The position numbers were made by a program, and so were the translations under genes. Shown in pieces: positions 17,122-31,679 of a DNA stretch of 32,160 nucleotides. Source of the DNA: an uncultured Porphyromonadaceae bacterium. Its GTDB lineage: Bacteria; Bacteroidota; Bacteroidia; Bacteroidales; Muribaculaceae. The notes beneath the pieces were generated by a model, which was not told the origin of the DNA, made no database searches, and saw only the letters and a program-made list of their open reading frames with translations. The DNA is taken from the NCBI GenBank assembly GCA_946187345.1, contig CAMHQD010000026.1, positions 1 to 32,160 on the forward strand, read 5' to 3'. How positions within the stretch are numbered: the first letter of the stretch is position 1; every line of letters begins with the position of its first letter.

Positions 17122-17145
17122 TTGTTATAGTCGTTAGTCGAATAG

Positions 17146-17208
17146 TCGAATGCTCGAATAATCGAGTGGTCGAGAAAATTATGAATTATGCATTATGAAT
17201 TATGCATT
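17146..17208. repeat. 63-bp direct repeat, copy 1
   Basis: This copy matches 17915-17977 at 60 of 63 positions. It contains TCGA-rich DNA followed by two tandem ATTATGAATTATGC units. The nitroreductase stop codon and its last few codons (MHNS) lie inside it. Confidence 0.8.
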
Positions 17209-17882
17209 AATTTAACGCCGGAGCCTATTTCAAAGTGGAGTTTGACGATGCCCAGGTCGATGGTGGAGTATGGGCCCCAGGCGCTCTCCTCGGCAACAAC
17301 CGTGCGGCCGTCGGCCTGCAGGGTGAAGCGGAACTTCTGCTGGTTGATTGCGGTGGGGGCCAGCAGAGCGGCATTCACTCCGGCGACAAACCAGTCGGGC
17401 ATCTCGCCACCGGGCAACAACGACTTGGCAACCTGGTCGATGCGCTTGATGCGGTGGGGCGCACCCTCGGGGTTGACGCCGTAGCCTATAGAGATGACGC
17501 ACGTGAGTTTCTCGTCGTCACGGATGTCAACGCGGTCGCGGTTGGTACGGTAGGTGAGCGCCACCCAACACGTGTTCAGACCCATGCGTTGCGCCTCGAG
17601 CACGATGCGCTCGCCGTAGTAGCCGGTGAGTTCGTCAAGGCCGGGCAGCCGCTTGTCGCCCACGATGGCGATGTAGTGGTCGGCGTTGCGGAACTTGCCG
17701 TAGTGCAGCAGGCTGGTGCCGAAGGCCTTTGGGTCGTCGGTGATGAGTTGGATGCGCAGGCCGCTCGCGGCGTTACAATCGTCGATTACCGCCTGCAAGG
17801 CTGCGACAACGTCTGCCTCAAGCGGCCTCTTCTGGTACGCGCGGATGCTATGTCGCTGTTCTATTGCTTCGAGTAGTGTCAT
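17193..17882 (-). CDS. Nitroreductase family protein
   Basis: The 229-residue protein is a flavin-dependent nitroreductase-family member, with the N-terminal signature EAIEQRHSIRAYQKRPLE (FMN-phosphate contact Arg-His-Ser-x-Arg), an AxxxGLxxCW-like strand (QRMGLNTCWVALTY), and a GYGVNPEG...HRIKR segment. The double-domain layout with a second LAPTAINQQKFRF segment near residue 180 recalls the putative TM1586-like nitroreductase family, in which the domain order is shuffled. It probably reduces nitro or quinone compounds using NAD(P)H and FMN, cytoplasmic. The C-terminal residues are encoded by repeat copy 1, suggesting the repeat replaced or trimmed the original gene end. Flanked on both sides by the 63-bp repeat. 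Confidence 0.85.
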   Translation of the reverse strand: MTLLEAIEQRHSIRAYQKRPLEADVVAALQAVIDDCNAASGLRIQLITDDPKAFGTSLLHYGKFRNADHYIAIVGDKRLPGLDELTGYYGERIVLEAQRMGLNTCWVALTYRTNRDRVDIRDDEKLTCVISIGYGVNPEGAPHRIKRIDQVAKSLLPGGEMPDWFVAGVNAALLAPTAINQQKFRFTLQADGRTVVAEESAWGPYSTIDLGIVKLHFEIGSGVKLMHNS

Positions 17883-17900: not shown

Positions 17901-17932
17901 GATTATTCGAGCAATCGAATGCTCGAATAATC
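17901..17932. repeat. Perfect 12-bp inverted repeat before the nitroreductase gene
   Basis: GATTATTCGAGC (17901-17912) is mirrored by GCTCGAATAATC (17921-17932) with an 8-base loop. It overlaps repeat copy 2 and lies 19 bp before the nitroreductase start, between a run of A on the minus strand and the repeat. On the minus strand the stem is followed by A, not U, so it is not a standard terminator. Confidence 0.7.
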
Positions 17933-17977
17933 GAGTGGACGAAATAATTATGAATTATGCATTATGAATTATGCATT
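17915..17977. repeat. 63-bp direct repeat, copy 2
   Basis: Second copy of the repeat at 17146-17208, three mismatches. It begins exactly after the stop codon of the lipoprotein gene and spans most of the spacer to the nitroreductase. Confidence 0.8.
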
Positions 17978-21622: not shown

Positions 21623-21654
21623 CGGCTGCCCCAAATTGGGGCGGTCGTTTTTTT
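21623..21654 (+). terminator. Strong terminator between integrase and repressor
   Basis: A nearly perfect 12-bp stem (CGGCTGCCCCAA / TTGGGGCGGTCG, with G-U pairs) is followed by seven T. It ends at the stop of the convergent repressor gene and could act in both directions. Confidence 0.8.
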
Positions 21655-22330
21655 AGTATAGAGCCACGTCAACGCGGGCGATTACTTTGAAGATGTCGCC
21701 GCGGATGTCGGCCACCGGCAGGTCAAACGGCGGGAACTCGTTGTTGAACGAGACGCAGCGCACATGGCCGTCGCGCTCTGAAGGGTATAGCCGTTTGACG
21801 ATTGGCCCGTCGGCGGTCATGATGGCATAGACGGCTCCCCATTGTATAGATGATGTGACGCGCTGCAGGGCAATCCACGCGCCGTCCGGTATTGACCGGC
21901 GCGGGTTATCGCGGTCGAGCATCGAGTCTCCCCTGACGCGCAGGAAAGGTATGTCAACCCGGTTGGGCACACCCGGCACGGCCATAAAGCCGGCGGCCTG
22001 ACTGATGGCGAATTGCTCCATGCCGGTTGCCGCCGGCAGTCCGCCCTGGATTGTGGCGTTGTCGAAGTACGGGTTTGCGGCGATGGCTACGCCGTCGCCT
22101 GCCGTTGTTGTACCCTCGCCCGTTAGCATCTCGCCCTCGCCCGTTAGCAGCCACGTGCGCGACAACTCTGGAAATGCAGAGAGAATATTAGATAATTTAT
22201 CAAGGGATGGTTGGTGGCGAAGTTTAGACATATAGCCATTTGACAAGCCACAAAGAGTCTCAAATTTGTTTACGCTCAGCCCTTTTTGATTAATAAAAAG
22301 CACAAGCCTTTGTTTTACAGATTGTTCCAT
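21653..22330 (-). CDS. S24-type phage repressor (HTH + LexA-like peptidase)
   Basis: The 225-residue protein has an N-terminal helix-turn-helix (about residues 5-60, with NKFETLCGLSNGYMSKL) and a C-terminal S24 peptidase domain with the catalytic dyad Ser136 (RVRGDSM) and Lys179 (GPIVKRLYPS). A possible Ala-Gly self-cleavage site is A113-G114. CI-like: it should hold the element silent and be inactivated by RecA-stimulated self-cleavage after DNA damage, inferred from the family. Residues 62-75 contain a seven-residue tandem duplication (TGEGEML type) in the linker, encoded by a 16-bp DNA repeat at 22113-22128 and 22134-22149. It is divergent from the early genes and separated by palindromic operator candidates. 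Confidence 0.9.
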   Translation of the reverse strand: MEQSVKQRLVLFINQKGLSVNKFETLCGLSNGYMSKLRHQPSLDKLSNILSAFPELSRTWLLTGEGEMLTGEGTTTAGDGVAIAANPYFDNATIQGGLPAATGMEQFAISQAAGFMAVPGVPNRVDIPFLRVRGDSMLDRDNPRRSIPDGAWIALQRVTSSIQWGAVYAIMTADGPIVKRLYPSERDGHVRCVSFNNEFPPFDLPVADIRGDIFKVIARVDVALY

Positions 22331-24573: not shown

Positions 24574-24616
24574 CAAAGAAGCATCTTTTCTCAGGCTTTG
24601 GCTTGATTGTTGATGT

Positions 24617-24637
24617 GGCGCCGCCTGGCGCGGCGCC
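24617..24637 (+). other. Perfect 8-bp GC hairpin upstream of the RecT-like gene
   Basis: GGCGCCGC-CTGGC-GCGGCGCC followed by TTTC, 68 bp before the start at 24705. Possible attenuator or weak terminator. Confidence 0.5.
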
Positions 24638-24704
24638 TTTCAGCAATCAGGACGGAGGCCGGGAGAGAGCGATATTATTAACCGTTTTAACATCAACAAT
24701 CATT

Positions 24705-25487
24705 ATGGCAAAAGCAACAAGCAACGAACTGACGGTGCAGGAGAGCCGCGAACTGCTGTCCTCGCCCGTGTATCAGACCATCAAGACCTTTGAGGTGCAA
24801 CAGCGCATGGCGCAGATGTACGTCTCCTCGACCATCGTTCCCGCGGCCTATAAGGGCAACGTGGGCAACTGTGTCATCGCCATCGACATGGCTCAGCGCA
24901 TGGGCGCGAACCCACTGATGGTGATGCAGAACCTCTATGTGGTGAACGGCAATCCGGCGTGGAGCGCGAAGTTCCTCATCTCGTGCATCAACACTTGCGG
25001 CCGTTTCACGCCGCTGCGCTATGAGTACAAGGGCAAGCCCGGCACGAAGGACTACGGCTGCCGCGCCTATGCCTACGAGACGAGTGACAAGGAGCACAAA
25101 GAGCCGCTCTATGGCGTGTGGGTGACGATGGACATGGCCGAGAAGGAGGGCTGGACGCGCAAGACCGGCAGCAAGTGGCTGACGATGCCCGACATGATGC
25201 TCATCTACCGGGCGGCGGCGTTCTGGGCACGTGCCTACGCGCCGGAGATTTCGATGGGTTTCCTGACCAAGGAGGAGACCGACGACGGCGTGAACCCGCG
25301 TGTTGTCGACTTTGAGGACGTGACAATTCCCACCGTCGACCCGCAGGCTGTCGAGGCTGAGGCCGAGCCGGTGGCGGAGCCTCAGGCCGAGCCGCAGCCC
25401 GCCACACCCGCCGACGCGGTGCGCGCGGCCATGGATCGCCAGACGCGTCCGCGTGTGGACACCACCACGGGCGAACTGTTCGACTAA
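24705..25487 (+). CDS. RecT-like single-strand annealing protein (putative)
   Basis: The 260-residue protein has the look of phage RecT-type annealing proteins: a central conserved stretch VPAAYKGNVGNCVIAIDMAQRMGANPLMVMQNLYVVNGNPAWSAKF (matching the family's pattern of 'amelArrmGldPl...l..v.G.p.ls...l'), a KGWTRKTGSKWLTMPDMMLIYRAAAFWARAYAPE segment, and a Glu/Pro/Ala-rich disordered tail ending GELFD. The start at 24705 (MAKATSNELTVQE) is chosen over an upstream frame extension at 24603 that has no similarity and would read through the hairpin. Directly followed by a YqaJ exonuclease, the standard recT-exo pair for phage recombination. Annealing activity is inferred. Confidence 0.72.
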   Translation: MAKATSNELTVQESRELLSSPVYQTIKTFEVQQRMAQMYVSSTIVPAAYKGNVGNCVIAIDMAQRMGANPLMVMQNLYVVNGNPAWSAKFLISCINTCGRFTPLRYEYKGKPGTKDYGCRAYAYETSDKEHKEPLYGVWVTMDMAEKEGWTRKTGSKWLTMPDMMLIYRAAAFWARAYAPEISMGFLTKEETDDGVNPRVVDFEDVTIPTVDPQAVEAEAEPVAEPQAEPQPATPADAVRAAMDRQTRPRVDTTTGELFD

Positions 25488-25495
25488 ACTTCCAC

Positions 25496-25541
25496 GCCCG
25501 CTCCCGCAACTGAAAACGACGCGTAGGTGGCAGGGGCGGGC
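25496..25541. other. 9-bp inverted repeat between the RecT-like and exonuclease genes
   Basis: GCCCGCTCC (25496-25504) pairs with GGGGCGGGC (25533-25541), one G-U pair, long loop, no T-run. Possibly an mRNA-stability or processing hairpin. Confidence 0.45.
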
Positions 25542-25580
25542 AAATCAACAATCATCAACAACCAACAAAAAACCAGAGCA

Positions 25581-26546
25581 ATGAGTTACAACATTATTCG
25601 TCCGGCCACCCACGCCGAGTGGCTCGCGCAGCGCTCGCGCGGCATCGGCTCGAGCGAGGTGGCGACAATCCTGGGTCTCAACCCCTTTGACACGCCTTAT
25701 CAGTTGTGGCGCCGCAAGCGCGGCATCGACGGTCCCGTTCCCGAGAACGACGCCATGCGCGCCGGTCATATCCTCGAGGGCGCCGTGGCGACCTACTTCG
25801 AGCAGGAGACCGGCCACACGGTGATCAAGGCCAGCGACGGCGACTGGCTGGCCGTGGACAGTGACCGCGACTACATGCGCGTCTCTCCCGACCGCACCTA
25901 CTGGGTGGACGAGCAGGGCAAGCGCAACGAGGCCAACAAGGGCATCCTCGAGTGCAAGACCACGCAACTCGATGTCGACGCCGACGACCTGCCGGCCCAC
26001 TGGTTCTGCCAGTTGCAGTACCAGTTGGGCGTGATGGGCTACACCAGCGGCACGCTGGCGTGGCTGACGCGCGGCCGCAAGTTCGGCTGCAAGGCCGTCA
26101 CGTTTGACGCCGACCTCTACGGTTATATTACCGAGAGTGTGGAGCACTTCTGGCTCGACAACATCGTCGGCGGCCGCGAGCCGGACATGTCGGGTGTGGA
26201 CGACGTGCTGCTGCGCTGGCCTCTGCACACGGCCGGCAAGACAATTGAGGCCACTCCCGAGTTGATGGACAGTATCACGACAATCAAGTCTCTGAAGCCA
26301 CAAATCGACACGCTCACCGAGCAGAAGAAAGAGGCCGAGGAGTTGATAAAGGCGGCCATGCGCGACGCGGACAGCCTCGTGCTGCCCGGCTCGAGCGGCA
26401 CGGCCAGGGGCGACGTGCTGGCCACGTTCCGCGCGCCGAAGCCCGGCCGCAAGTTTGATGAGAAACTGTTCAAGGCCGAGCACCCCGACCTCTATGAGGC
26501 CTACTGCCGCGAGCAGCAGGGCGCGCGGCGTTTCCTGGTCAAGTGA
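25581..26546 (+). CDS. YqaJ-type viral recombinase / exonuclease
   Basis: The 321-residue protein matches the lambda-exonuclease-like YqaJ family: N-terminal WLAQRSRGIGSSEVATILGLNPFDTPYQLWRRKRG, acidic metal-site segments ... MRVSPDRTYW ... GILECKTT (E-x-K of the PD-(D/E)xK fold) and WFCQLQYQLGVMGY. A C-terminal coiled-coil-like helix (SLKPQIDTLTEQKKEAEEL) and basic tail follow. It resects double-stranded DNA ends to make 3' overhangs for the RecT-like partner upstream. Start at 25581 (MSYNIIRP), the longer in-frame extension from 25527 lies in intergenic DNA. Confidence 0.88.
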   Translation: MSYNIIRPATHAEWLAQRSRGIGSSEVATILGLNPFDTPYQLWRRKRGIDGPVPENDAMRAGHILEGAVATYFEQETGHTVIKASDGDWLAVDSDRDYMRVSPDRTYWVDEQGKRNEANKGILECKTTQLDVDADDLPAHWFCQLQYQLGVMGYTSGTLAWLTRGRKFGCKAVTFDADLYGYITESVEHFWLDNIVGGREPDMSGVDDVLLRWPLHTAGKTIEATPELMDSITTIKSLKPQIDTLTEQKKEAEELIKAAMRDADSLVLPGSSGTARGDVLATFRAPKPGRKFDEKLFKAEHPDLYEAYCREQQGARRFLVK

Positions 26547-26729: not shown

Positions 26730-27167
26730 ATGACTACCAAAGAGCGATTTGAACAGTTGATGGCGCGGCACAACGTGAGCGCGCCGCGAGCCCACAGCGA
26801 CCTCGAGCACCGCCTGCAGGCCGCCTGCGTCCAATGGTTCGCGCTGGCTCACCCCGCGCTGCGCCACAACCTGTTCGCCGTGCCCAACGGCGGCCGCCGC
26901 GACGCCACCACCGGCGCGCGCCTCAAGGCCGAGGGCGTGCTGGCCGGCGTGGCCGACCTGATTCTGCTGCGCCACAAAGACATCTACGGCGCGCTGCTGC
27001 TCGAACTCAAGACGGCCACCGGCCGGCAGAGCAAGGCGCAGCGCGACTGGCAGCGTGCCATCGAGCGTGACGGCTACAAGTACGTCATCGTCCGCTGCAT
27101 CGACGACTTCATCCGTGAAGTCGAGCAATACCTGTCACCGGCAACAACGACCCCGCAACCATGTTGA
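26730..27167 (+). CDS. VRR-NUC domain nuclease
   Basis: The 145-residue protein carries the VRR-NUC fold of the PD-(D/E)xK superfamily: SDLEHRLQAACVQWFAL, VPNGGRRDATTGARLKAEGVLAGVADLIL (with the catalytic Asp), and LLLELKTATGRQSKAQRDWQRAI (E-x-K and Q). Phage members are Holliday-junction or structure-specific nucleases. The ATG at 26730 is given as start; a GTG at 26721 that overlaps the upstream stop is an alternative giving three more residues. It belongs to the recombination block with RecT-like and YqaJ proteins. Confidence 0.85.
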   Translation: MTTKERFEQLMARHNVSAPRAHSDLEHRLQAACVQWFALAHPALRHNLFAVPNGGRRDATTGARLKAEGVLAGVADLILLRHKDIYGALLLELKTATGRQSKAQRDWQRAIERDGYKYVIVRCIDDFIREVEQYLSPATTTPQPC

Positions 27168-28051
27168 GAAAAGAGAAAGGATTCAGCAAGTGGTGGAAAG
27201 ACTTCAGCGACCACGACCTCTACCGCCACCCGATTGCAAGCCGCGTGTTCACCGACCTGTGTCTGCGCGACGGCGACCGGCGTCTCACGGGCACCACCGT
27301 TGAGCGGCTGATGGCCGCGCTGCAGTTGAGCAAGCCCAGCGTGCTGAAAGCGCTGCGCCTGCTCGAGCAGGCGGGTTTCATCTACCGCGAGGTTGACTCC
27401 GAGTGCCGCAACCGCAACGTCATCCGCCTCAACTTTGGCAGCACAGCAAGGGCCGAAAGCGGTAAACAAGATTTACCGACTGAGGTAAACGAAATTGACC
27501 AAAGCGGTAAAAAAGATTTACTCGGTAAACGAAATTTACCGTCGGTAAACGAAATTGACCAAAGCGGTAAACGAAATTTACCAAGTTCGGACAATGAGCC
27601 GGAAAAAGCGGTAAACGAAATTTACCAAGTTGGTAAACGAGATTTACCGACACACCTTATTAATAGTAAAGAATTATTACAAGAATATATCGTCGACGAG
27701 ACGCGCGCGCGCGAAGGAGATTTTGTTGAGGAATTTTTCTCAAAGCGGGAGCAGATTGCGAGGCTGTGCCGTGAGCTCGGCGTGAGCGCCGACGAACTGC
27801 GGCGGGTCGCGCGCGAGGTGGCCGACGACTGGGAACTCACCGGCAAGCGTCATGACAACCGCGCCGACGCGCTCTCCCACCTGCTGTCGACAATCCGCAT
27901 CAAGGTCAAACTCAAAAAGCAAGAAAACAATGACACTGCAAGTAAACCAACTACTCGCGCCGAGGACGTCGCGCGCCTTGTCCACGGAGCCGCGGCAACT
28001 ATCGCCCGCCGTGAGAGCGAAGGTGGACCGGACACTGAGCCTGTTTGGTGA
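27161..28051 (+). CDS. Replication-initiator-like protein (winged helix) with iterons inside its gene
   Basis: The 296-residue protein has an N-terminal winged-helix region (about 15-85: DLYRHPIASRVFTDLCLRDGD..., LQLSKPSVLKALRLLEQAGFIYREVD), a repeat-rich linker (about 100-165), and a C-terminal helical domain (REQIARLCRELGVSADELRRVAREVADDWELTGK). That is the O-protein plan of phage initiators: DNA-binding domain, linker, interaction domain. The linker is encoded by eight 17-bp palindromic repeats (27461-27648) read in two frames, giving GKRNLP-type and VNEIDQ-type peptides. The start overlaps VRR-NUC by 7 bp; the end overlaps the next gene by 122 bp. Function as initiator is inferred from this organisation; no enzymatic motif is seen. 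Confidence 0.7.
   Translation: MLRKEKGFSKWWKDFSDHDLYRHPIASRVFTDLCLRDGDRRLTGTTVERLMAALQLSKPSVLKALRLLEQAGFIYREVDSECRNRNVIRLNFGSTARAESGKQDLPTEVNEIDQSGKKDLLGKRNLPSVNEIDQSGKRNLPSSDNEPEKAVNEIYQVGKRDLPTHLINSKELLQEYIVDETRAREGDFVEEFFSKREQIARLCRELGVSADELRRVAREVADDWELTGKRHDNRADALSHLLSTIRIKVKLKKQENNDTASKPTTRAEDVARLVHGAAATIARRESEGGPDTEPVW
27461..27700 (+). other. Putative phage replication origin: eight iterons plus AT-rich region
   Basis: Consensus GGTAAACGAAATTTACC (arms GGTAAA/TTTACC, 5-bp centre). Copies start at 27461, 27484, 27506, 27524, 27544, 27566, 27610, 27632; steps are mostly 22-23 bp (44 between the sixth and seventh), about two helical turns. Immediately after the last one lies an AT-rich stretch (about 27655-27700), suitable for strand opening. 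This mirrors the lambda origin within gene O. Confidence 0.75.
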
Positions 28052-28634
28052 CCGTGACGGCTTCCTCGCGAAGATGGCGCCTGTCAAGCAACTCGCCGCC
28101 GGCCGTGACCCGGAGCGCGCCCACTTCGGAGACGCCCCCAGCCTGGCCATCATGCGGCAGGCCTATGGCGACACCTTCCCCGGATCCTGGCTCATCGTCC
28201 AGTTGACGGACCTGATGGCCTACACCAACAACCGCTCGCTGCCCGGCGCCGACACTCTCGAGTATCTGGCCGAGGCAATCATGCAGGACTACTACTACCT
28301 CAAAGCGTCCGAACTTTTGCTGTTTTTCTACCGTTTCAAATTGGGTAGATACGGCAAGTTCTACGGCAACGTCGACCCCATGGTCATCATGCAGGGGCTG
28401 GAGAAGTTCGCCGCCGAGCGGCAGACGGCTATCATTGCCAAAGAGGAGGCCGACGAAAGGGCAAAGCGCGACAACAGAGAAAACGTCGTGTACCCTGTCG
28501 AGTGGTGCCGCGCCCATGGATTCCCACCCACCGACGACATCCACCGCTGCATCGAGATGATGATGCTATACAACTTCGTGGTTGACCTGTTGTGGAAAAT
28601 CCACTACCTCTACCTCGCGGTAACTAAAAACTAA
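27930..28634 (+). CDS. Protein overlapping the initiator gene; possible helicase-loader analogue
   Basis: The start at 27930 (MTLQVNQLLAP) is preferred over an in-frame ATG at 27852 because the earlier residues are arginine/serine-rich junk read from the initiator gene. The 234-residue product has a basic N-terminus (SPAVRAKVDRTLSLFGD), a helical middle (LAIMRQAYGDTFPGSWLIVQLTDLMAY, ADTLEYLAEAIMQDYYYLKASELLLFFYRFKLGRYGKFYG) and a C-terminus rich in hydrophobic residues (MMMLYNFVVDLLWKIHYLYLAV). I do not recognise a named family. Its place and size next to an O-like initiator recall lambda P (helicase loader), but no ATPase motif is visible. Confidence 0.6.
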   Translation: MTLQVNQLLAPRTSRALSTEPRQLSPAVRAKVDRTLSLFGDRDGFLAKMAPVKQLAAGRDPERAHFGDAPSLAIMRQAYGDTFPGSWLIVQLTDLMAYTNNRSLPGADTLEYLAEAIMQDYYYLKASELLLFFYRFKLGRYGKFYGNVDPMVIMQGLEKFAAERQTAIIAKEEADERAKRDNRENVVYPVEWCRAHGFPPTDDIHRCIEMMMLYNFVVDLLWKIHYLYLAVTKN

Positions 28635-28673
28635 AAACGAACAACTAAAAAACGAACAATTAAAAACGAAAGA
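28625..28673 (+). repeat. Short A-rich tandem repeats
   Basis: Three imperfect copies of ACTAAAAACGAACA-type units run from the end of the preceding gene to the ATG at 28675. Confidence 0.5.
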
Positions 28674-31102: not shown

Positions 31103-31443
31103 CACGACAAGAGATAGCGGAGGCTTACGCTAAAACCGAATTGCAAGACAATCACGCGCCGATTGAAGTGATTGTAGCGGCAGCATTCCTGAACGGTATA
31201 GACTATGAGCAACACCATCCCCGTTGGATTTCGGTTGAAGACGAACTGCCGCCGAAAAAGACAGGCGAGGCGAGCGATAAGGTGCTGGTCTACGAACCCA
31301 AAACCAATCGCATCGGCGCATCTTGGTACTTCCACTCGACTGGGAAGTGGTTCAACGGCTGGGATGTCACCCACTGGATGCCGTTGCCCGAGCCGCCCGA
31401 ACATTTTGCTGACGTCAGCAAAAAGAAAGGAGGTAAGCAATGA
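31099..31443 (+). CDS. DUF551-containing phage protein
   Basis: The 114-residue protein overlaps both neighbours by ATGA. The central WISVEDELPPKK ... SDKVLVYEP ... WYFHSTGKWFN ... THWMPLPEPP is typical of DUF551, a short phage domain with unknown function. A short N-terminal helix (RQEIAEAYAKTELQD) precedes it. Confidence 0.78.
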   Translation: MTRQEIAEAYAKTELQDNHAPIEVIVAAAFLNGIDYEQHHPRWISVEDELPPKKTGEASDKVLVYEPKTNRIGASWYFHSTGKWFNGWDVTHWMPLPEPPEHFADVSKKKGGKQ

Positions 31444-31679
31444 GGTGCAACAAGTGTAATGGGACCGGTGTCGTAGCCAACCCAAGATACTATCGTCACT
31501 CAAACGGTGAAGCATGGGAAATGGGAATACCCGCAACAAAGCCATGCAAGCACTGTGGTGGGAGTGGTTATATCATTGGCAATATAGGCGACATAGTAGA
31601 TCGCCTACGTGTTGCAGCCAATGGAGTGACTATAACTAAGAGAGAAGCAAAACAAATGCTTGATGCAATCTTAAAGTGA
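31440..31679 (+). CDS. DnaJ-like zinc-motif protein
   Basis: The 79-residue protein has two CxxCxGxG motifs (CNKCNGTG at the start, CKHCGGSG near 36-43), the pattern of the DnaJ cysteine-rich zinc-binding domain, followed by a helical tail (DIVDRLRVAANGVTITKREAKQMLDAIL). It lacks a J-domain. It may bind zinc and act as a small adaptor. ATGA overlap with the DUF551 gene. Confidence 0.65.
   Translation: MRCNKCNGTGVVANPRYYRHSNGEAWEMGIPATKPCKHCGGSGYIIGNIGDIVDRLRVAANGVTITKREAKQMLDAILK

What the first reader, a model, noticed from the sequence alone, without database searches (positions are those of the whole stretch)
27461..27700. Lambda-style replication origin inside an initiator gene: eight iterons read in two frames
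Eight copies of GGTAAACGAAATTTACC-like palindromes lie in the linker of a winged-helix protein gene with steps of about 22 bp, then an AT-rich stretch. Steps that are not multiples of three place five copies in one frame (G-K-R-N-L-P) and three in another (V-N-E-I-D-Q), so the DNA, not the peptide, is what is kept. The same layout is known for lambda gene O; I know of no described case for this Bacteroidota element.
Basis: partly seen in the sequence, partly recalled or inferred. Interest (0 to 1): 0.85.

Follow-up and report, generated by a model that had tools for sequence, protein, structure and literature searches.

The report
Phage origin inside its initiator gene
A prophage in a Bacteroidota-type bacterium keeps eight likely binding sites for its replication-starting protein inside the gene for that protein, a known viral layout; comparing relatives suggests that the matching site can be read from four amino acids of the protein.

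Summary
Eight 17-bp GGTAAA-N5-TTTACC dyads lie at 27461-27648 inside ORF 27161-28051, five in one reading phase and three in another, followed by an AT-rich stretch. They lie in the predicted disordered linker between a MarR-like winged helix and a helical C-terminal domain, beside RecT, YqaJ and VRR-NUC genes of a prophage with a CI-like repressor.

DNA, not peptide, is kept. Synonymous recoding never restores the array in 20,000 draws. In 29 related initiators with this iteron, steps are even modulo 3 but cluster at helical multiples (22, 33, 42-46 bp).

The layout is a known kind (lambda O, SPP1 gene 38, TP901-1), and this iteron is widespread (64 viral stretches, reversed control 0). It is therefore a new member, not a new system.

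Beyond the finding, in initiators fetched by their N-terminal domain, the in-gene half-site covaries with four residues at the start of the recognition helix. The window's SKPS fits GGTAAA. Many homologs show no detectable array. Binding and origin activity are untested.

The parts
27161..28051 (+). Replication initiator gene (296 aa): winged helix, disordered linker, helical C-terminal domain
   Evidence: phrog_186 E 5.2e-6, phrog_678 O-like E 6.3e-5; homologs L035, L040, L018 along the whole length; AlphaFold2 model
27179..27430 (+). MarR-like winged-helix DNA-binding domain (aa 7-90)
   Evidence: Model; MarR_2 E 1.7e-4 and HTH_36 E 2.1e-4, both below Pfam cut-off; weak profile matches to MarR-family chains
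27329..27370 (+). Recognition helix (aa 57-70), beginning S-K-P-S
   Evidence: Helix 58-70 in the model; the matching SKPT block is the best predictor of the iteron among 88 scored blocks in a related family
27461..27477 (.). Iteron 1 GGTAAACAAGATTTACC, phase 0
27484..27500 (.). Iteron 2 GGTAAACGAAATTGACC, phase 2
27506..27522 (.). Iteron 3 GGTAAAAAAGATTTACT, phase 0
27524..27540 (.). Iteron 4 GGTAAACGAAATTTACC, phase 0
27544..27560 (.). Iteron 5 GGTAAACGAAATTGACC, phase 2
27566..27582 (.). Iteron 6 GGTAAACGAAATTTACC, phase 0
27610..27626 (.). Iteron 7 GGTAAACGAAATTTACC, phase 2; 44 bp (two normal steps) after iteron 6
27632..27648 (.). Iteron 8 GGTAAACGAGATTTACC, phase 0
27656..27694 (.). AT-rich stretch, candidate unwinding element (21% GC)
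   Evidence: profile
27665..28018 (+). Helical C-terminal domain (aa 169-286), also found behind other N-terminal domains in the same genus
27930..28634 (+). DUF6633 gene, overlapping the initiator gene (start at the in-frame ATG 27930 is my choice; the ORF opens at 27852); candidate partner, possibly helicase loader (inference)
   Evidence: PF20338 E 9e-18; paired with the initiator in L018, L035, L040
26721..27167 (+). VRR-NUC nuclease gene of the same module
   Evidence: PF08774 E 6e-6; phrog_824 E 6e-41
25527..26546 (+). YqaJ / RecE-like exonuclease gene
   Evidence: PF09588 E 2e-19; phrog_434 E 6e-80
24603..25487 (+). RecT-like annealing protein gene
   Evidence: phrog_561 E 1e-73
21653..22330 (-). 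CI-like S24 repressor gene
   Evidence: PF00717 E 3e-10; phrog_4 E 6e-17

Best explanation
ORF 27161-28051 is the replication initiator of a prophage, and the eight iterons in its linker are the binding sites of its own winged-helix domain. Together with the AT-rich stretch just downstream they form the phage origin. Most likely a dimer binds each 17-bp dyad; the array, largely on one DNA face at about 22-bp steps, assembles a nucleoprotein complex; the AT-rich stretch opens; and the C-terminal domain, perhaps with the overlapping DUF6633 product, brings in the replicative helicase. Shown: the array, its placement, selection on DNA, the gene family and gene context. Supported by comparison: recognition of the iterons by this helix type. 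Inferred from lambda O and SPP1 gp38: dimer binding, opening, helicase loading and origin activity.
For: Eight dyads in the linker against at most 4 in 20,000 synonymous recodings. Adjacent 21% GC stretch. Initiator families and full-length homologs. The linker is disordered in the model and the recognition helix starts at SKPS. The same iteron lies in the genes of 29 representative initiators; with the window, 25 of 30 match phrog_678. Their steps are even modulo 3 (29/27/26 of 82) but periodic near 11 bp (R 0.70, 79 steps; for the 23 steps of 25-60 bp, 1 of 5000 random sets reaches it). In another family, fetched by its N-terminal domain, the iteron type follows the recognition helix (partial r 0.345, 1 of 5000 permutations; without the one iteron-selected member 0.366, 0 of 5000; SKPT is the top of 88 scored blocks), and SKPT/SRPT mostly goes with [GA]GTAAA. 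RecT, YqaJ and VRR-NUC genes lie upstream. Precedents, seen as passages: lambda, SPP1, TP901-1 and Tuc2009.
Against: No binding or replication data exist. The contig ends at 32160, so the phage is incomplete here and a second origin elsewhere cannot be excluded. Of 23 other homologs, chosen by matches to either domain, only L018 and L127 show a linker array above the synonymous null (20 shuffles each). Five genes in the initiator position beside DUF6633 in phage records show none by direct-repeat search. The nearest GGTAAA homologs, L035 and L040, are only about 30% identical. The window's own steps are not perfectly regular (18 and 20 bp among them). The model has low overall confidence (mean pLDDT 67, pTM 0.37).
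Confidence: 0.87

Rival explanations
1. The array is an operator: the winged-helix protein binds inside its own gene to block or adjust transcription of the replication operon, and the origin lies elsewhere.
For: The N-terminal domain resembles MarR-family regulators.
Against: Eight dyads followed by an AT-rich stretch in mid-gene are more than an operator usually needs (recalled); the initiator families and the lambda, SPP1 and TP901-1 precedents point to an origin. Both roles could coexist.
Confidence: 0.06
2. The repeats are selected as peptide (a G-K-R-N-L-P linker repeat), and the DNA similarity follows from it.
For: Five of the eight copies share one phase.
Against: Three copies read as V-N-E-I-D/Y-Q; synonymous recoding loses the array; TTA, GTA and CGA are used against the codon habit of the ORF; steps show no preference modulo 3 in 29 relatives or in 23 further arrays, 21 of them mixed-phase.
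Confidence: 0.01
3. The repeats are a recent neutral tandem expansion without function.
For: Copies 2-3 and 5-6 are 92% alike over 38 bp (family D1), so local duplication probably took part in building the array.
Against: Steps vary (18 to 44 bp) while the 12 half-site bases hold (11 or 12 of 12); other phages with different flanking domains have the same dyad in the same gene position.
Confidence: 0.02
4. The iterons serve copy-number control, incompatibility or partition of a plasmid-like prophage rather than initiation.
For: Iterons have such roles in plasmids (recalled).
Against: Prophage gene order with a CI-like repressor and recombination genes. I did not search the window for partition genes specifically.
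Confidence: 0.04

Closest known systems
Phage lambda O protein and ori-lambda (also Stx phages)
   Same: Iterons bound by the initiator lie in the middle of the initiator gene, next to an AT-rich tract; O is dimeric in solution (passages of PMC7466680, and PMC3985674).
   Different: Four iterons of 19 bp in lambda and six in the Stx phages, eight 17-bp dyads here; no Phage_rep_O (PF04492) match for the window protein at E 0.1; no lambda P-like gene appeared among the ORFs that I scanned.
SPP1 gene 38 / oriL; TP901-1 ORF13 and Tuc2009 ORF16 replisome organizers
   Same: Repeats within the cognate initiator gene act as origin (passages of PMC6316719, and PMC8965321).
   Different: Described there as direct repeats in Firmicutes phages; host phylum differs here, and I did not compare the proteins.
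GKESLP-type phage initiators in IMG/VR and GTDB contigs
   Same: Same GGTAAA-N5-TTTACC dyad, linker position, two-phase reading and about 22-bp step.
   Different: Other N- and C-terminal domains in nearly all; L035 and L040 share the window's whole architecture.
Geminivirus Rep and its iterons
   Same: Divergence of the Rep DNA-binding domain is said to correlate with iteron sequence and arrangement (passages of PMC6669703).
   Different: Rolling-circle Rep of plant viruses, with iterons in the origin region rather than in the initiator's linker; mentioned only as a parallel for covariation.

Membership tests
Phage initiator with in-gene origin (lambda O / SPP1 gp38 / TP901-1 kind) | Gene for a phage replication initiator with an N-terminal DNA-binding domain | tested here: met
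   phrog_186, phrog_678; winged helix in the model
Phage initiator with in-gene origin (lambda O / SPP1 gp38 / TP901-1 kind) | Several iterons inside the initiator gene | tested here: met
   Eight dyads, above the synonymous null
Phage initiator with in-gene origin (lambda O / SPP1 gp38 / TP901-1 kind) | AT-rich element next to the iterons | tested here: met
   27656-27694, 21% GC
Phage initiator with in-gene origin (lambda O / SPP1 gp38 / TP901-1 kind) | Helicase loader or helicase encoded beside it | tested here: inconclusive
   DUF6633 gene overlaps and is paired with the initiator in L018, L035, L040; its function is unknown
Phage initiator with in-gene origin (lambda O / SPP1 gp38 / TP901-1 kind) | Initiator binds the iterons | not testable with these tools
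   Only indirect: covariation of helix and iteron in relatives
Phage initiator with in-gene origin (lambda O / SPP1 gp38 / TP901-1 kind) | Replication starts there | not testable with these tools
   No reads or experiments available
Phage_rep_O sequence family (PF04492) | Significant profile match | tested here: not met
   No hit at E 0.1 for the window protein; 3 of the 30 scanned initiators match it
DnaD-like helicase loader family (phrog_186) | Profile match over the conserved domains | tested here: inconclusive
   E 5.2e-6 over aa 3-149, which includes the iteron-coded linker

The most novel reading that the evidence does not exclude
Phage initiators of this layout carry a readable DNA-recognition code. 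About four residues at the start of the winged-helix recognition helix set the half-site, and the same gene states the answer in its linker. In a family not chosen by iteron, P-T goes with GTAAA, Q-T with TCAA, K-Q-G with TTAAA, R at the third place with G at the fourth base, K-T with GTGTA. The sites are 6-5-6 dyads mostly about 22 bp apart, usually read in mixed phases. Initiator specificity and origin would then travel as one exchangeable cassette, with the linker encoding two messages at once.
Probability: 0.6. Interest if true: 0.75.

Novelty: new member of a known kind. Interest (0 to 1): 0.5.

Why it matters
The window itself adds a prophage of a Bacteroidota genome to phages whose origin is written inside the initiator gene. 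The wider point is larger: because protein and binding site share one gene, many uncultured phages may give matched pairs of DNA-binding domain and target without any experiment. That would make origin prediction for metagenomic phages, and a winged-helix recognition code, directly testable. It is also a clean case of DNA sites kept under a coding sequence, where helical spacing is conserved and reading phase is not.

Tried and rejected
Close relatives of the whole protein: none confirmed in viral contigs, genome contigs or the phages collection. Relatives came from whole-genome searches and from iteron and profile searches.

An exact window-type iteron pair in viral contigs gave 0; the general dyad pair gave 64 and the reversed control 0 (this control was run in viral contigs only).

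Peptide-repeat and neutral-duplication readings were rejected.

Negative or weak results. Of 23 other homologs, 2 show a linker array above the null (L134 also exceeds it, but with scattered sites); L035 was listed in that script but gave no row. BF1-TP2, BS-TP2, Dulem virus 40 and two further records show no direct-repeat array in the gene before DUF6633 (15 shuffles; no dyad search was run on them). In the A3 family 26 of 78 scorable genes exceed all 40 synonymous shuffles and 38 of 78 pass a limit of two. In the A5 family 39 of 53 exceed all 40, but most are near-identical lineages, and 32 of its 54 loci are contigs already found by iteron. Three of the 80 A3 loci (L146, L195, L197) are also contigs. 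Nearest-neighbour prediction from the rest of the domain (4.50 of 6 bases) is almost as good as from the helix (4.63), because relatives share helices. Two of 6 PT helices (L148, L168) had another best dyad. At the level of 17 distinct A3 helix types, R with G is 5 of 5 against 4 of 12 (p 0.03). In the A5 test three rows are weak (L238 and L244, 1 of 40 shuffles reaches the score; L235, 2 of 40), and I first left out L279 (SKPT with AATTAA, reached by 11 of 40 shuffles); with it the count is 2 of 2 against 0 of 10. The four-residue helix block was first picked by eye and then ranked among all blocks; that script gave division warnings, so the ranking was repeated without the one constant block and did not change.

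Rows dropped: of 91 stretches with the dyad pair, 83 had an ORF under the criteria (60 of 64 viral, 23 of 27 genome; among the genome rows L091 shows one copy and L098 none inside the reported ORF). Of 40 non-window clusters, 14 were left out by eye as not initiator-like or truncated (L065, L068, L085, L091, L095, L096, L097, L100, L103, L105, L107, L109, L110, L115), and L061, L039 and L099 were added from one large cluster, giving 29. The kept clusters hold 57 of the 64 viral and 11 of the 27 genome stretches. In one search, 23 of the 32 dereplicated arrays were used; nine with scattered or noisy sites were left out (L148, L165, L168, L172, L192, L196, L203, L207, L214).

Full report
WHAT IS THERE. 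The window is the whole of contig C26 of a 131-contig genome and carries Bacteroidota markers: SusD family and a type 9 secretion plug domain. From about 21.6 kb to the contig end it holds prophage genes among ORFs without a match: a CI-like S24 repressor (21653-22330, minus strand), RecT-like and YqaJ/RecE-like recombination genes, a VRR-NUC nuclease, the gene in question, and a DUF6633 gene. Near the end lies a weak match to Q-like antitermination proteins at 31440-31679 (phrog_127 E 1.3e-4).

THE ARRAY. ORF 27161-28051 holds eight 17-bp dyads GGTAAA-N5-TTTACC with steps 23, 22, 18, 20, 22, 44 and 22. Five are read in phase 0 and three in phase 2. Phase 1 would put TAA in frame, so an exact GGTAAA copy can use only two phases. 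The T-to-G variant (TTGACC) occurs only in two of the three phase-2 copies; in phase 0 it would be TGA, a stop. An AT-rich stretch follows (27656-27694, 21% GC).

DNA, NOT PEPTIDE. With the protein fixed and synonymous codons drawn at random over the array, 20,000 draws gave at most 4 sites of 11/12 or better (ORF codon usage) or 2 (phage-gene usage), against 8. TTA, GTA and CGA codons are common in the array and rare or absent elsewhere in the gene.

THE PROTEIN. It matches phage initiator families weakly but consistently (phrog_186 E 5e-6, phrog_678 E 6e-5). The AlphaFold2 model (15 sequences, mean pLDDT 67, so moderate) shows a winged helix (aa 7-90), a linker with pLDDT under 50 for nearly all of aa 94-182, and a helical C-terminal domain (169-286). 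The iterons encode aa 101-163, that is, they sit in the disordered part. The recognition helix (58-70) starts at S-K-P-S. Homologs along the whole length are L035 and L040 (viral contigs) and L018 (same genus), at 25-31% identity; in all three the initiator is followed by a DUF6633 gene.

THE SAME ITERON ELSEWHERE. A pair of GGTAAA-N5-TTTACC dyads 20-47 bp apart occurs in 64 stretches of viral contigs and 27 of genome contigs, from several phyla by record title; the reversed pattern gives 0 in viral contigs. Of these 91 stretches, 83 had an ORF for the pair. After clustering and leaving out 14 clusters by eye, 57 of 64 viral and 11 of 27 genome stretches lie in initiator-like genes, for which I used 29 representatives (see Tried and rejected). 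With the window, 25 of 30 match phrog_678 and 21 of 30 phrog_186. Their 80 exact iterons are in phase 0 (60) or 2 (20), never 1, and 14 of 29 arrays mix phases (exact copies counted). The 82 steps (copies with up to one mismatch) are even modulo 3 (29/27/26), yet they cluster at 20-24, 32-34 and 42-46 bp: near 11 bp R is 0.70 for the 79 steps up to 60 bp, and for the 23 steps of 25-60 bp only 1 of 5000 random sets is as periodic. Helical face is kept; reading phase is free.

HOMOLOGS NOT CHOSEN BY ITERON. L018 has six dyads of another type (TATCA...TGATA) at steps 22 and 23 with alternating phases, and L127 has three (GTACAA-like) in all three phases. So homologs keep an array in the same place but with another DNA word, and with other peptides. 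The remaining 21 of 23 genes show no linker array above the synonymous null, and five genes beside DUF6633 in phage records none by direct-repeat search. The layout is therefore common, not universal, and my detector may miss irregular repeats.

A RECOGNITION CODE. I then fetched initiators from viral contigs with only the N-terminal domain of another iteron-bearing family as query (best 80 of 153 kept; 3 of the 80 are contigs). An unbiased dyad search found arrays whose half-site depends on the start of the recognition helix: SKPT/SRPT mostly with [GA]GTAAA, TKQT with [GA]GTCAA, TKQG with [AG]TTAAA, TKRS/TRRT with GGTGAA, TKKT/SRKT with AGTGTA, TDRS/TDRG with GCGGAA, SKST with GGTGTC. In the 32 dereplicated genes with an array, out of 38 of 78 scorable genes, site similarity follows helix similarity after correction for the rest of the domain (partial r 0.345, 1 of 5000 permutations; without the iteron-selected member L146, 31 genes, 0.366, 0 of 5000). 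Of 88 scored four-residue blocks of the domain, the SKPT block is the best predictor. Pairs with the same helix but under 55% identity elsewhere share 4.9 of 6 bases (9 pairs); pairs with at least 55% identity elsewhere but at most 2 of 4 helix residues in common share 3.5 (64 pairs), as random pairs do (3.5). R at the third helix place goes with G at the fourth base in 6 of 6 genes, against 4 of 26 others (p 2e-4). In a second family, fetched with a query that stops before the helix (32 of 54 loci already known), it is 2 of 2 helix types against 0 of 10, one of the two (L244) resting on a weak array. The window's SKPS with GGTAAA fits, and it was not part of these sets. This is the best sequence evidence that the protein binds its own linker DNA. 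The permutation tests do not model descent in full, so the code is a strong correlation, not a proof.

MECHANISM. By analogy with lambda O and SPP1 gp38, dimers would bind the dyads, assemble a complex on one DNA face, open the AT-rich stretch and load the helicase. Array, position, family, selection on DNA and, in relatives, helix-site covariation are shown here; binding, opening and loading are inferred. DUF6633 as helicase loader is a guess from position only.

KNOWN OR NEW. Origins inside initiator genes are established for lambda and Stx phages (PMC7466680, PMC3985674; passages), SPP1 oriL in gene 38 (PMC6316719; passages), and TP901-1 and Tuc2009 (PMC8965321; passages). The review of Weigel and Seitz 2006 was seen only in reference lists; its content is recalled. 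So the window is a new member of a known kind. I found no paper describing the helix-iteron covariation for phage initiators in the listings, which cover open-licence PMC papers only and of which I opened seven as passages; the parallel that I saw is geminivirus Rep (PMC6669703).

Noticed in passing
27930-28634: A DUF6633 gene overlaps the initiator gene and is paired with it in L018, L035 and L040; in Bacteroides phages BF1-TP2 and BS-TP2 and in Dulem virus 40 it follows other genes in the initiator position. It may be a helicase loader or other replication partner.
   Followed up: partly
L010-L026 (same-genus genomes and a second contig of this genome, L023): The initiator's C-terminal domain occurs behind several different N-terminal domains in genomes of the same genus, which suggests exchange of DNA-binding modules.
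   Followed up: partly
L166 and L216 (viral contigs): In TTAAA-type arrays, copies in the phase where TAA would be in frame use a variant base (for example TACAA, TTCAA or TTGAA), so site degeneracy lets the array cross reading phases without stops.
   Followed up: partly
27566-27610: One step is exactly twice the usual 22 bp, as if one iteron had been lost or replaced between copies 6 and 7.
   Followed up: no
28622-28671: Seven copies of an AACTAAA-like unit lie around the end of the DUF6633 gene and before the next ORF.
   Followed up: no
17127-17209 and 17913-17977: Similar short tandem repeats (TCGAAT-rich, and ATTATGAATTATGC) stand on both sides of a nitroreductase gene in the chromosomal part.
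   Followed up: no
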